41,425 bases of DNA from a virus, in IMG/VR virus record IMGVR_UViG_3300036851_000391, positions 1 through 41,425 of that record, one strand, 5' to 3'. Both the position numbers and the translations under genes were made by a program. Below the pieces are notes generated by a model. That model did no database searches and was not told the DNA's origin. It saw nothing but the letters and a program-made list of their open reading frames with translations. This document shows, piece after piece, positions 3,281 to 32,725 of this stretch (its first letter is position 1; every line of letters begins with the position of its first letter).

Positions 3281-3568
3281 ATGAAGAGTAAGAGACGCAG
3301 AGAACTTGGGAAGAAGAGATTGGCAGAACTGCATGAGTTGTGCTCTCAGGCCGGATATCGCGTGCAGGTCTTCACGCCGATTCACGTTCGAATCATGGGG
3401 GTCAATCAGGTTGATTATTGGCCAACTACAGGCCGCGGCTGGCTCACGCACACGAGCCATGCGGCGCAGGTTATGACGCCGTCGGAAGCTGTCGAGATGG
3501 CGGGAGCGAGATTGCCCGAATTACCTGCCGAGGCGGCGGATCACATGCGAAGTCTACGTCTTCAATGA
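3281..3568 (+). CDS. Hypothetical protein, possible early regulator
   Basis: 95 residues, start ATG 3281 after a GAAGAGAAGAG purine-rich site. It begins MKSKRRRELGKKRLAELHEL (strongly basic), then a beta-rich core with YWPTTGRGWLTH, and ends in an acidic helix containing TPSEAVEMA. The stop overlaps the next small frame as ATGA. I do not recognise the family; the basic N-terminus allows nucleic-acid binding. Confidence 0.6.
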   Translation: MKSKRRRELGKKRLAELHELCSQAGYRVQVFTPIHVRIMGVNQVDYWPTTGRGWLTHTSHAAQVMTPSEAVEMAGARLPELPAEAADHMRSLRLQ

Positions 3569-28332: not shown

Positions 28333-28526
28333 GGTCCGCGCCTCGCCTTGACCTTCATCTGAAATAGCTCCCACAACTGGGGACGCATCTTCGCCGTCCC
28401 CAGTTCCCAGTCCTGCCATGTGCGGTACGCGACTCCGATCAATTCGCCGGCTTCTTTTCGGGAAAGCCCAGCCGAGAGACGTTTCCGTTTGATCTCGGCC
28501 GGGGTTGGATTACCCGATGAAGGCAT
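28329..28526 (-). CDS. XRE-type helix-turn-helix regulator behind the Ro gene
   Basis: 65 residues from ATG 28526 (73 if the ATG at 28550 is used, which has AGGG upstream). RKRLSAGLSRKEAGELIGVAYRTWQDWELG is a typical Cro/XRE helix-turn-helix. It overlaps the end of the Ro gene and lies in the same transcript. It could autoregulate the operon through the palindrome in its promoter (30559-30577); this is a hypothesis from co-location. Confidence 0.65.
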   Translation of the reverse strand: MPSSGNPTPAEIKRKRLSAGLSRKEAGELIGVAYRTWQDWELGTAKMRPQLWELFQMKVKARRGP

Positions 28527-30153
28527 TGATGGCTTGCGGGAGCGACGCATCCATCCCTACGAAATTCATGCAACCCGCATCCTTCGGGTCGACCACACTT
28601 GACTCCGTCGCCGTGAAGGCGATGAACCCCAGCTTTAGCGGCCCGATCTCGCGCCGGTACGCCTGCAGCTCTGCTGCAGCATGCGTCGGCCCGGCCCACG
28701 TTTCGTTGTCCGTGTAGACAAGCACAGCGTCAGCCTGGACCTTATTCGCGCGCGCCCAGCGAATGGGGAGCGCGCAATCAGTCCCGCCGAAGTTCATACC
28801 ACGCGTCTTCGCGAGTACGTCATTCAGCGAGTCACGCTTCGTGATGCCAAGGTCGCGGAAGTCCGTCGCGAACCCGAAGGCCCAATACTGCGGCTCGGTT
28901 CGTACCGTGATGAGCGCCATCGCCGCAGCAGCCTCCGCCACGGTGATCGGCGACTCGTTCACGGTCATTCCCATGCTGCCCGAGACATCGATGCCGAGGA
29001 TGAAACGCTTGCCAGTCGGTGCCACGTTATGGAACGACAGATCGAACGCGTAGTCCAGCGCACCTGTTACCTGCGGAACCACCGTCCACGAACCAGATCC
29101 ACGGAAGCCTGATCCCTTCGCGTACGTGCGCGAGGCAAGCAGGACATGCCACGGATGCACGCGCGCCTTACGGATTGCTTCACCATCGGCCAGCTTCTCC
29201 TGCACGAACTTCGCCGCCTGAGAGAACGGCGTTAGCAAGCTACACTTCGACAGATTGCCGAGGTTACGGATCAGCGCCGTGTAGCCGAGGGACGGCAGGA
29301 GCGCTTCCCACACTTCCGCGCTCGACAACAGTTCGGTCGGCACGAACTCACGTTGCAGGCGAGTCTCCGCGATGATCTTCGCCGCCGTCTTTGGGTCCTT
29401 CTCATCACGCACGCGCAACCAGCCGTCCACGAACGGTGCCAGCGTGCGTACACCCTCCCATCCCGTGGCCACCGTCTGGCGTTCGGTCAGTGCCTTGCGC
29501 GCCTTCTGAGCGCGACGTTCCGCGCCGACTTCTGGCTCGCAGATCGCATCAAAGACCCGCTTGGTTGCGGCGTCCTGCGTGACAGGGTGCGTCAGGCGCA
29601 GCACGTCCCGATGGGAAACACCGTTGCGCTGCTGATACTTGATCGCCTGAAACGCGATGTCCTGCGCCGGACGGTCCATGTACCACTTCGAAATCGCCGT
29701 ACGGATACCACGGCCCCAGCCTCCGCCAAGTGCCTGCCGGTACTCCACGAAGGTGAAGAGGTGCGTGCCGATGCGGCACACAGCCGGCAGAGCCGCGAAA
29801 GCCGATTTGCGGGTCGCCTGATCGCCACGCACGGAGGCAAGTGCAAGCGCGAAGATGGCCGGTTCATTCTTCGGCGCCAGTCCCTTGTCGGAAATTTCAG
29901 CCGTCTCGCGCACGACTCGAGCGCCGTCCTGCTTGATGCAGTTCAGCACGACGTCAGCGTTTTCAATCGTGAGTTTCTTTTCGCTCGCGTAGTAGGTGCC
30001 GCCCTGGCTCCCGAGAATCAGGAAGCGCCGCAGACGAGACCAGTCGTCGAGTTCGAACACATAGCCGCCAGCCGCGTTCTGGATCATCGGTTGACCCGGC
30101 AACGGCTGCGACTGGGGAGTCTGGAGGGGAGAGAAGTGCTTCGCGTAGGTCAT
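28510..30153 (-). CDS. rsr: Ro60/Rsr-type RNA-binding protein (TROVE plus von Willebrand A domain)
   Basis: 547 residues with a perfect AAGGAGGT ribosome site. The N-terminal TROVE region (about 10-370) shows the Ro hallmarks: GGYVFELDDWSRLRRFLILG, GGTYYASEKKLTIENADVV, GIRTAISKWYMDRP and a HEAT-like helical ring. The C-terminal von Willebrand A domain has a complete MIDAS: DVSGS (Asp389, Ser391, Ser393), Thr458 in GGTD and Asp482 in YTDNE. Ro proteins form a ring that holds misfolded RNA ends and bind Y RNAs outside the ring; in bacteria they tether PNPase or assist RNA maturation. Length matches bacterial Rsr (about 530). It is the first protein gene after four Y-like RNAs, within one presumed transcript. 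No rtcA or rtcB is present. Confidence 0.95.
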   Translation of the reverse strand: MTYAKHFSPLQTPQSQPLPGQPMIQNAAGGYVFELDDWSRLRRFLILGSQGGTYYASEKKLTIENADVVLNCIKQDGARVVRETAEISDKGLAPKNEPAIFALALASVRGDQATRKSAFAALPAVCRIGTHLFTFVEYRQALGGGWGRGIRTAISKWYMDRPAQDIAFQAIKYQQRNGVSHRDVLRLTHPVTQDAATKRVFDAICEPEVGAERRAQKARKALTERQTVATGWEGVRTLAPFVDGWLRVRDEKDPKTAAKIIAETRLQREFVPTELLSSAEVWEALLPSLGYTALIRNLGNLSKCSLLTPFSQAAKFVQEKLADGEAIRKARVHPWHVLLASRTYAKGSGFRGSGSWTVVPQVTGALDYAFDLSFHNVAPTGKRFILGIDVSGSMGMTVNESPITVAEAAAAMALITVRTEPQYWAFGFATDFRDLGITKRDSLNDVLAKTRGMNFGGTDCALPIRWARANKVQADAVLVYTDNETWAGPTHAAAELQAYRREIGPLKLGFIAFTATESSVVDPKDAGCMNFVGMDASLPQAINAFIG

Positions 30154-30180
30154 AAGGACCTCCTTTGTTAGTGAATCAGA

Positions 30181-30271
30181 TCGGGCGTGGAATTGAAGTC
30201 GGATTAACTCCCTTGCGGGAGTCTTGGAGTCGAACCAAGTTTAACCAGATAACCAACCTCTGCCGGCCCGA
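30181..30271 (-). ncRNA. Y-like RNA 4, with T-arm and GNRA-capped acceptor helix
   Basis: Outer helix TCGGGC (30271-30266) with GCCCGA (30186-30181), internal loop CGGCA, inner helix GAGGTTGG (30260-30253) with CCGACTTC (30202-30195), then TTATC. Inside are a tRNA T-arm, CTTGG-TTCGACT-CCAAG (30239-30223), and directly after it ACTCCC-GCAA-GGGAGT (30222-30207), an acceptor-like stem with a GNRA loop. It lacks a D-arm, so it is a reduced version of RNA 2. It ends about 28 bases before the Ro start codon. Confidence 0.75.
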
Positions 30272-30279
30272 AACTCAAA

Positions 30280-30338
30280 GGGGCGTGGTTGTGAAACAGG
30301 GATGTCGATATGAGTGATAACCCTATCTCTCCGGCCCC
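30280..30338 (-). ncRNA. Y-like RNA 3, minimal form
   Basis: Outer helix GGGGC (30338-30334) with GCCCC (30284-30280), internal loop CGGA on the 5' side and ACAACCAC on the 3' side, inner helix GAGATAGGG (30329-30321) with CCCTGTTTC (30301-30293, two G-T pairs), then a loop starting TTATC. No tRNA-like part. It keeps only the presumed Ro-binding stem, like a stripped Y RNA. Confidence 0.7.
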
Positions 30339-30346
30339 AAAATCAA

Positions 30347-30475
30347 GATGGACGTGGTATGCCAATCGGGGTTTACGCGCTCTAACCAGCTGAGCTACCG
30401 GACCTCACGGCCCGAGGGAGAATCGAACTCCCGACCTCGTCCTCCGAAGGGATAACCGATTAACTCCGGCCCATC
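30347..30475 (-). ncRNA. Y-like RNA 2 with a complete permuted tRNA mimic (YrlA type)
   Basis: Outer helix GATGGGC (30475-30469) with GTCCATC (30353-30347), CGGA loop, inner helix GTTAATCGG (30464-30456) with CCGATTGGC (30369-30361), then TTATC. The inside holds in order: a UUCG-capped arm (30452-30440); a T-arm GGGAG-TTCGATT-CTCCC (30432-30416); an acceptor helix TCGGGCC-GTGA-GGTCCGG (30415-30398) closed by a GNRA loop instead of free ends; TA; and a D-arm GCTC-AGCTGGTTA-GAGC (30395-30379). It is a tRNA cut open at the anticodon arm and closed at the acceptor, as described for bacterial YrlA RNAs. Confidence 0.85.
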
Positions 30476-30482
30476 AATCTGC

Positions 30483-30547
30483 GGCGAACGTGGTGTGCTG
30501 CTTGGGTTATAACATTACAAGTGTTAACCAAACTGCTCCGGCTCGCC
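30483..30547 (-). ncRNA. Y-like RNA 1, at the transcript start
   Basis: Outer helix GGCGAGC (30547-30541) with GTTCGCC (30489-30483), CGGA loop against ACACCAC, inner helix GC-A-GTTTGG with CCAAGC-A-GC (one A-A mismatch), then TTAAC and a small hairpin TAACA-CTTGTAA-TGTTA. The predicted transcription start (about 30550) falls three bases before the outer helix, so the RNA 5' end matches the promoter. Confidence 0.7.
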
Positions 30548-30557
30548 TTTAAATCGA

Positions 30558-30585
30558 AGTATACGGACTCCGTATACGAACGCAA
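30558..30585 (-). promoter_or_regulatory. Promoter of the Y RNA-Ro operon with overlapping palindromic operator
   Basis: On the minus strand TTGCGT (30585-30580) and TATACT (30563-30558) are 16 bases apart. GTATACGGA-C-TCCGTATAC (30559-30577) is a perfect 19-base palindrome covering the spacer and most of the -10. A bound dimer would block RNA polymerase. The regulator is unknown; the XRE protein encoded in the operon is the obvious candidate. The upstream gene ends at 30609, so this promoter makes the operon independent. Confidence 0.7.
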
Positions 30586-32309: not shown

Positions 32310-32653
32310 GGCTTACCCTCTGCGCTGACAGTGGACCTGTGCTCTCCACGTGGATATCCGCATTCGAGGCAATAGCGGCTTTTCGGGTCTGGTACGAACG
32401 CCGTGCAAGCAAGGTCGATGAAGTCGTCGACGAACTCGACTGACGGATGCTTGGCGCCGTTCTTTGCCAATCGGTCGAGGAGCGCTCCCACACGCGGATC
32501 ACCGAGTTCAGCGTCTTTAATGGTCTCGGAGCCGCCGTCCCATTTCACGATGCAATCGGTCACTTCGCTTCTCCATTGTCCGAGCGTCGCGGCGATTTCC
32601 GTCGCACAGAAGTCGCACAGCGCGAAACGACGGCCACATACGCGGCCGCGCAA
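32306..32653 (-). CDS. Cys-containing protein just past attP, start uncertain
   Basis: Up to 115 residues from TTG 32653, or 86 from GTG 32563. VCGRRFALCDFCATEI and YCLECGYPRGEH are zinc-knuckle pairs, so the longer form is favoured. In-frame codons continue upstream (ADFTDKLRGR) to a TAG six bases before the tRNA-derived attP core, which suggests that the original start was lost when the attachment site formed or moved. After integration this gene is the first at one prophage end. Confidence 0.55.
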   Translation of the reverse strand: MRGRVCGRRFALCDFCATEIAATLGQWRSEVTDCIVKWDGGSETIKDAELGDPRVGALLDRLAKNGAKHPSVEFVDDFIDLACTAFVPDPKSRYCLECGYPRGEHRSTVSAEGKP

Positions 32654-32679
32654 TTTGTCAGTGAAATCAGCGTGCTAGA

Positions 32680-32725
32680 TGGTGGGTGCTGACGGGATCG
32701 AACCGCCGACATTCGCCTTGTAAGG
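32680..32725. other. attP core: 3' half of a tRNA-Val(UAC) gene
   Basis: On the minus strand: CCTTACAAGG (anticodon loop CTTACAA, anticodon TAC, at 32724-32718), variable loop, T-arm GGCGG-TTCGATC-CCGTC, then AGCACCC and ACCA. These are tRNA positions about 31-76 of a proteobacterial tRNA-Val. The 5' half (acceptor and D-arm) is absent upstream, so this is not a functional tRNA gene. Next to the integrase, it is the attachment site that would rebuild host tRNA-Val on integration. Confidence 0.85.

What the first reader, a model, noticed from the sequence alone, without database searches (positions are those of the whole stretch)
30379..30452. Circularly permuted tRNA mimic with GNRA-closed acceptor stem
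In order: UUCG arm, T-arm GGGAG-TTCGATT-CTCCC, acceptor strand TCGGGCC, loop GTGA, acceptor strand GGTCCGG, TA, D-arm GCTC-AGCTGGTTA-GAGC. The acceptor pairs over 7 bases (two G-T). This is a tRNA elbow with the free ends moved to the anticodon position. YrlA RNAs are known to mimic tRNA and to be recognised by tRNA-modifying enzymes. A phage copy might attract tRNA enzymes, nucleases or synthetases, or serve as a decoy for tRNA-targeting defences.
Basis: partly seen in the sequence, partly recalled or inferred. Interest (0 to 1): 0.9.

Follow-up and report, generated by a model that had tools for sequence, protein, structure and literature searches.

The report
Phage Y RNA mimicking a tRNA
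The segment is the tRNA-shaped head of a small noncoding 'Y RNA' that a phage encodes next to its own copy of the Ro60 RNA-binding protein, a known kind of RNA, here one of four in a row and with a miniature anticodon arm that comparison with relatives brings out.

Summary
Confirmed. On the minus strand, 30452-30379 is the tRNA-like head of a 129-nt Y RNA (30475-30347). It is the second of four tandem Y RNAs that form the leader of a phage Ro60 gene (28510-30153, minus). A covariance model built from 72 relatives, window excluded, finds it at 51.1 bits; it scores a Salmonella YrlA at 52.7. The acceptor helix covaries at all 7 pairs, and tRNA core pair 15-48 covaries (70/72; shuffles average 41, maximum 54). 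So this is a YrlA-type Y RNA. That family is already known (reportedly in phages too), and its circular permutation is published.

One correction: the opening is not at the anticodon position. In 42 of 56 relatives, and 12 of 19 held-out ones, the stretch before the T-arm forms a small stem with exactly a 7-nt loop obeying anticodon-loop rules. The chain opens between D-arm and anticodon arm.

Beside it, Y RNA 30271-30181 belongs to a second arrangement (D-loop, T-arm, capped hairpin) seen in other Ro60 loci. I found neither feature described, but the primary Y RNA papers could not be read. The decoy role is untested.

The parts
30347..30475 (-). Y RNA b (YrlA type): Y stem GATGGGC/GTCCATC, GG/CC, upper stem, UUAUC, tRNA-like head
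   Evidence: Stem scan and fold; model R1 51.1 bits; Rfam YrlA 37.9 bits, E 9e-7, under the gathering score of 69
30440..30452 (-). Mini anticodon arm UCC-CU-UCG-GA-GGA (7-nt loop; U33, G37, A38)
   Evidence: 42/56 relatives share a 7-nt-loop stem here, against 8.8 in shuffles; held-out set 12/19; ARAGORN reads anticodon TCG at exactly 30447-30445
30433..30439 (-). Variable-loop-like CGAGGTC (C48 matches G15 of the D-loop)
   Evidence: 15-48 covariation, 70/72
30416..30432 (-). T-arm GGGAG-TTCGATT-CTCCC
   Evidence: Sequence; covariation in family
30398..30415 (-). Acceptor-like hairpin TCGGGCC-GTGA-GGTCCGG
   Evidence: 7/7 pairs show double-sided changes in 72 relatives
30379..30395 (-). D-arm GCTC-AGCTGGTTA-GAGC
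   Evidence: Sequence; family covariation
30483..30547 (-). Y RNA a (plain, no tRNA-like head)
   Evidence: Stem scan 41.1, fold
30280..30338 (-). Y RNA c (plain)
   Evidence: Stem scan 40.6, fold z -2.5
30181..30271 (-). Y RNA d: D-loop-like AUCUGGUUA, T-arm CTTGG-TTCGACT-CCAAG, hairpin ACTCCC-GCAA-GGGAGT ('D-first' order)
   Evidence: Fold z -3.3; same type in L002, L010, L045, L058, L173, L174
28510..30153 (-). Phage Ro60 (TROVE + vWA_Ro60), 547 aa, AAGGAGG 30165-30159
   Evidence: Pfam E 4e-42 and 4e-48; PDB Rsr 2nvo and Ro60 1yvp E <1e-110
30558..30585 (-). Candidate promoter TTGCGT-16-TATACT overlapped by the 19-bp palindrome GTATACGGAGTCCGTATAC (30559-30577)
   Evidence: Sequence only

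Best explanation
The segment is the effector head of a YrlA-type Y RNA. The phage makes a leader transcript carrying four Y RNAs followed by the Ro60 reading frame; the Y RNAs would be cut apart at the short, mostly U-rich spacers. Phage Ro60 binds each one through the conserved GGGCCGG...CCACGCCC stem. The head folds as a near-complete tRNA: mini anticodon arm, variable loop, T-arm, acceptor closed by a GNRA loop, D-arm. It is opened between D-arm and anticodon arm, exactly where the Ro60-binding stem leaves. Shown here: locus, anatomy, covariation, membership. Inferred from work on other species: the head is modified and bound like a tRNA, and docks the Ro60 ring to, or gates it from, RNA-processing partners, so that the phage can steer decay or repair of structured or damaged RNA during infection. 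The confidence given is for the identity and anatomy; I put the inferred function at about 0.5.
For: Ro60 gene immediately downstream. Four Y stems in a row. R1, built without the window, scores it 51.1 bits and Salmonella YrlA 52.7. Covariation: 93.6% of cells paired against 68.5% in shuffles, score 0.664 against 0.183. Acceptor pairing 6.2/7 against 3.4 with swapped partners. 15-48 pair 70/72, replicated 26/28 in a held-out set. Mini anticodon arm 42/56, replicated 12/19. Arrays of the same make-up occur in other Ro60 phages. Xenopus Ro60's KYxQRxGxSHxDLLRLxH stretch is largely conserved in the phage protein.
Against: No expression, binding or modification data exist for this phage. Rfam YrlA stays below its gathering score (37.9 against 69), as do the phage relatives tested. 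The mini anticodon stem is only 3 bp in the window and costs 4.5 kcal/mol against the free-energy optimum. Covariation could partly be inherited from tRNA ancestors rather than kept by selection. No PNPase or RtcB was identified among the window genes that were scanned (not every ORF was scanned).
Confidence: 0.85

Rival explanations
1. Decoy: the head is made mainly to occupy tRNA-targeting nucleases or tRNA enzymes of the host's anti-phage defence, the mini anticodon loop being the bait.
For: A 7-nt loop with U33 and A37/A38 is kept in most heads. Triplets differ between heads and even between near-identical phages (L173 GCG, L175 GUG). A competitive-inhibitor role was proposed for Salmonella YrlA (PMC7790460). 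Phages often carry arrays of several Y RNAs.
Against: The same heads are as common in bacterial chromosomes (20 of 24 segments there have the arm), so the feature is not phage-specific. Always tied to a Y stem and Ro60 here. No tRNA nuclease was sought or found for this host, which is unknown.
Confidence: 0.15
2. Cis-acting leader: the Y RNA array mainly regulates its own Ro60 mRNA, by Ro60 binding and autoregulation, rather than acting in trans.
For: The array lies in the same orientation directly before the Ro60 start codon with no terminator found between; similar layout in L002 and L173.
Against: In GMA2 and Boopy some Y RNAs lie downstream of Ro60 among tRNA genes. The elaborate tRNA core would not be needed for a binding-site leader.
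Confidence: 0.1
3. Degenerate tRNA genes (a 3' half next to a 5' half) or chance.
For: ARAGORN calls tRNA-Arg(tcg) at 30481-30407.
Against: Rfam tRNA scores 18.3, cut-off 29. The two acceptor strands pair with each other across a 4-nt loop, and the whole is enclosed in a conserved Y stem next to Ro60. Expected 0.007 per simulated window.
Confidence: 0.02

Closest known systems
YrlA Y RNA of Salmonella (Rfam RF02553; crystal structure 6CU1; Chen et al. 2014, Wang et al. 2018)
   Same: Circularly permuted T-arm, acceptor hairpin, D-arm; Y stem; adjacent Ro60/Rsr. Model R1 scores both alike (52.7 and 51.1 bits). Circular permutation relative to tRNA is published (PMC11472068).
   Different: The Salmonella sequence has a different stretch before its T-arm (the Rfam model treats part of it as an insertion), where the window and most relatives have UUA plus a mini anticodon arm. 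The window lies in a four-member array in a phage and has a GTGA-closed acceptor.
Phage Ro60 (TROVE) loci of Mycobacterium, Gordonia, Streptomyces and other phages
   Same: Ro-like protein, 38-46% identical in the loci aligned, with Y RNAs, several carrying YrlA heads
   Different: The window's phage is a P22-portal type of unknown host; its nearest Ro60 relative is an uncultivated 89-kb contig (L002, 71% identity)
Viral tRNA-like structures (TYMV, BMV) and tmRNA
   Same: RNA parts imitating a tRNA
   Different: Non-circular permutation or no permutation, and 3'-end or trans-translation functions (PMC11472068)

Membership tests
Bacterial/phage Ro60-associated Y RNA with YrlA-type head | Encoded next to a Ro60 ortholog | tested here: met
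   Ro60 30153-28510, 193 nt after the RNA
Bacterial/phage Ro60-associated Y RNA with YrlA-type head | Y stem: pairing of 5' and 3' ends with the conserved internal element | tested here: met
   GGGCCGG...CCACG(Y)CC in all four RNAs; the refined scan of 1.3 Mb of Ro60 loci found 31 hits on the Ro60-sense strand and 1 on the other
Bacterial/phage Ro60-associated Y RNA with YrlA-type head | T-arm, closed acceptor, UA, D-arm in that order | tested here: met
   Sequence; R1 51.1 bits
Bacterial/phage Ro60-associated Y RNA with YrlA-type head | tRNA-like tertiary core | tested here: met
   G15/C48 in the window; G-C or A-U in 70/72 relatives; comparative, not structural, proof
Bacterial/phage Ro60-associated Y RNA with YrlA-type head | Dihydrouridine and pseudouridine made by tRNA enzymes | not testable with these tools
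   Reported for YrlA (PMC8394870)
Bacterial/phage Ro60-associated Y RNA with YrlA-type head | Bound by Ro60 | not testable with these tools
   The Xenopus KYxQRxGxSHxDLLRLxH stretch is largely conserved; no binding assay
Rfam RF02553 (YrlA) as curated | Score at or above gathering (69 bits) | tested here: not met
   37.9 bits, E 9e-7; a Salmonella locus reaches 70.9. So not filed under RF02553 itself but under the wider YrlA-type Y RNAs
tRNA (RF00005) | Score at or above gathering (29 bits), free acceptor end | tested here: not met
   18.3 bits; acceptor closed by a loop

The most novel reading that the evidence does not exclude
YrlA-type Y RNAs are, as a rule, whole-tRNA mimics that keep a miniature anticodon arm (7-nt loop, U33, A37/A38), opened between D-arm and anticodon arm. 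A second circular permutant (D-loop, optional stub, T-arm, capped hairpin) exists beside them, so that phage Y RNA arrays display several 'anticodons' and two permutations of one fold on Ro60. If unreported, this makes an anticodon-nuclease or tRNA-enzyme decoy role directly testable.
Probability: 0.4. Interest if true: 0.65.

Novelty: new member of a known kind. Interest (0 to 1): 0.42.

Why it matters
The RNA itself is a further case of a described family. It matters because the comparison it prompted suggests that most such RNAs imitate the anticodon arm as well, a part that neither the Salmonella YrlA sequence nor its Rfam model shows. It also suggests that phages string together plain, YrlA-type and D-first Y RNAs in front of Ro60. 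Together these give concrete predictions about which tRNA enzymes and anticodon nucleases the Ro60 particle could meet, and they explain some false tRNA annotations in phage genomes.

Tried and rejected
Rfam at gathering thresholds finds nothing in the window nor any YrlA in phage relatives. Folding energy of the head alone is uninformative (z -0.04). ARAGORN's tRNA-Arg was rejected as spurious. The weak R1 hit at 32645-32707 (10.6 bits) is treated as chance. A loose pattern for the D-first type gave 45 viral contigs, nearly all chance or true tRNAs. A pattern for permuted modules in all viral contigs was swamped by tRNA clusters. Full text of Chen 2014, Wang 2018 and the Sim/Wolin reviews was not held. 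DNA similarity to annotated phages is nearly nil. The host was not determined.

Full report
WHAT IS THERE. The finding gives no strand; its elements read 5' to 3' on the minus strand, 30452 to 30379, and all are present. The window is a 41.4-kb virus record with a P22-type portal. The minus-strand ORF 30153-28510, which starts just downstream, encodes Ro60: Pfam TROVE E 4e-42 and vWA_Ro60 E 4e-48, and the best solved relatives are Deinococcus Rsr 2nvo and Xenopus Ro60 1yvp.

THE ARRAY. Upstream of Ro60, 30547-30181 holds four units with one common stem (5' GGGCCGG... with a bulged C, 3' ...CCACGCCC): a 30547-30483, b 30475-30347, c 30338-30280, d 30271-30181. The finding is the head of b. Spacers are 7-8 nt and mostly U-rich (GCAGATT, TTGATTTT, TTTGAGTT). 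A refined stem scan over 1.3 Mb of Ro60 loci found 31 hits on the Ro60-sense strand and 1 on the other. The nearest relative, L002 (Ro60 71% identical), has about seven such units before Ro60 by eye; L173 has four, Gordonia phage Boopy five, GMA2 four and Microbacterium phage FuzzBuster three. Mixed arrays of plain, YrlA-type and D-first Y RNAs are thus a recurring layout.

IS THE HEAD REAL. I collected permuted modules from 171 upstream regions of Ro60 genes by T-loop and D-loop sequence alone: 72 modules in 58 loci; acceptor strands, not used in the selection, pair 6.18 of 7 against 3.43 with partners swapped (maximum 3.89 in 1000). On the alignment of these 72, window excluded, 93.6% of cells pair (shuffled 68.5%), all 7 acceptor pairs show double-sided changes, and the covariation score is 0.664 against 0.183, with slid controls at most 0.169. 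The model from this alignment finds the window at 51.1 bits, E 9e-14, and a Salmonella YrlA at 52.7. Simulated windows hold 0.007 such modules.

TERTIARY CORE. The tRNA Levitt pair joins position 15 (after A14 in the D-loop) to 48 (just before the T-stem). In modules with at least 6 acceptor pairs it is G-C or A-U in 70 of 72 (shuffled mean 41, maximum 54 in 5000), and in 26 of 28 held-out modules (shuffled 14.6, maximum 24). The window has G15 and C48. A caution: if Y RNA heads were captured from tRNAs more than once, part of this could be ancestry.

A MINI ANTICODON ARM. Between the Y RNA motif UUA(U/C) and the T-arm, 42 of 56 modules form a stem of 3-5 bp with exactly a 7-nt loop directly after UUA; shuffles give 8.8, and most other loop lengths stay near background (9 nt, which contains the 7-nt case with an opened pair, is also raised). 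Swapping tails between loci gives 16.0 against 43 of 59 observed. The loops obey tRNA rules: U33 32/42, purine 37 36/42, A38 30/42. A held-out set gives 12 of 19 (tail-swapped 6.3), all 12 with U33. In the window the arm is UCC-CUUCGGA-GGA, triplet UCG at 30447-30445. ARAGORN independently put a tRNA-Arg anticodon TCG exactly there, and in prophage prophiGD43A-5 the deposited 'tRNA-Thr(tgt)' reads its anticodon from the equivalent triplet. So the chain opens between D-arm and anticodon arm, not in the anticodon. Against it: the stem is short and 4.5 kcal/mol above the free-energy optimum, though the optimum's pairing is not kept in L173 or L175 (inspection sequences). The triplets are not conserved, even between near-identical phages.

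A SECOND PERMUTATION. Y RNA d has the D-loop-like AUCUGGUUA before, not after, its T-arm, then a GCAA-capped hairpin. A strict DNA pattern over 2.9 million viral contigs found four records, all of which encode Ro60, although Ro60 played no part in the search. A broader sequence-only definition finds 25 such RNAs in 24 Ro60 loci, phage and bacterial; 10 have a hairpin of at least 6 bp flush with the T-arm (3% in shuffles), and several bacterial ones carry a short hairpin (GCAA, GAAA) where an anticodon arm would be. A few of the 25 are followed by a normal D-arm and may be YrlA-type heads caught by the loose pattern. Docking of this D-loop on the T-loop is inferred, not shown.

HOW IT LIKELY WORKS. 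From the literature held: Deinococcus Rsr is tethered by Y RNA to PNPase (PMC7790460), and YrlA's tRNA-like domain is a substrate of DusA and TruB and is described as binding PNPase (PMC8394870). I infer that the phage makes its own Ro60 particle with several heads, the tRNA-like ones addressing tRNA-binding partners. A candidate promoter (TTGCGT-16-TATACT) overlapped by a 19-bp palindrome lies just before the array, so expression may be regulated; sequence evidence only.

NOVELTY. Circular permutation of Y RNA against tRNA is published (PMC11472068), and 364 phage records carry a Ro60 match, most annotated as Ro-like. From memory, Chen et al. 2014 already reported tRNA-like Y RNAs near Ro60 in over 250 bacterial and phage species; that paper was not held. 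The finding is therefore a new member of a known kind. The mini anticodon arm and the D-first type were not found in the papers I could read, which is weak evidence of novelty.

Noticed in passing
window 30181-30271 (-); L002 3718-3810; L045; L058; L173; L174; L010 2112-2206: D-first Y RNA class: invariant UUAYYUGGYUAA before the T-arm, then a capped hairpin; in the strict viral search it occurred only in Ro60-encoding contigs.
   Followed up: partly
L086, L100, L106, L113, L134, L150, L153, L162 (acceptor-closing loops): About ten acceptor-closing loops have CCA at positions 2-4, exactly where the tRNA 3' N73-CCA end would be, suggesting descent from permuted tRNAs.
   Followed up: no
L010 4971-5038 (record MK894436.1 88949-89016); L004 1184-1262; L012 2101-2309: Deposited tRNA-Ile, tRNA-Thr and a tRNA pseudogene in phage records overlap Y RNAs or YrlA modules: probable misannotations.
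   Followed up: partly
L005 4619-4834, 5371-5439; L010 4970-5094, 5387-5455: Y RNAs lying inside phage tRNA gene clusters, downstream of Ro60.
   Followed up: partly
window 30559-30577: Perfect 19-bp palindrome GTATACGGAGTCCGTATAC overlapping a candidate -10 just before the array; possible operator; its GTATAC half-site occurs nowhere else in the window.
   Followed up: no
window 30178-30275 and 30345-30478 (-): Weak Rfam matches of two Y RNAs to nematode sbRNA ceN72-3_ceN74-2 (E 0.75 and 2.3), both aligned on the GGUUAUC motif.
   Followed up: no
L348 (OR851267.1): Record named a Salmonella phage carries yrlB and yrlA beside a Ro60 fragment, so it looks like a host chromosomal piece.
   Followed up: no
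L005 4922-4978: Pistol ribozyme (56.8 bits) between tRNA genes of Gordonia phage GMA2.
   Followed up: no
L002 about 3476-3560: One unit of the L002 array begins like a Y RNA (GGGCCGGG) but was not found by either stem scan; possibly a different fold or a decayed copy.
   Followed up: no
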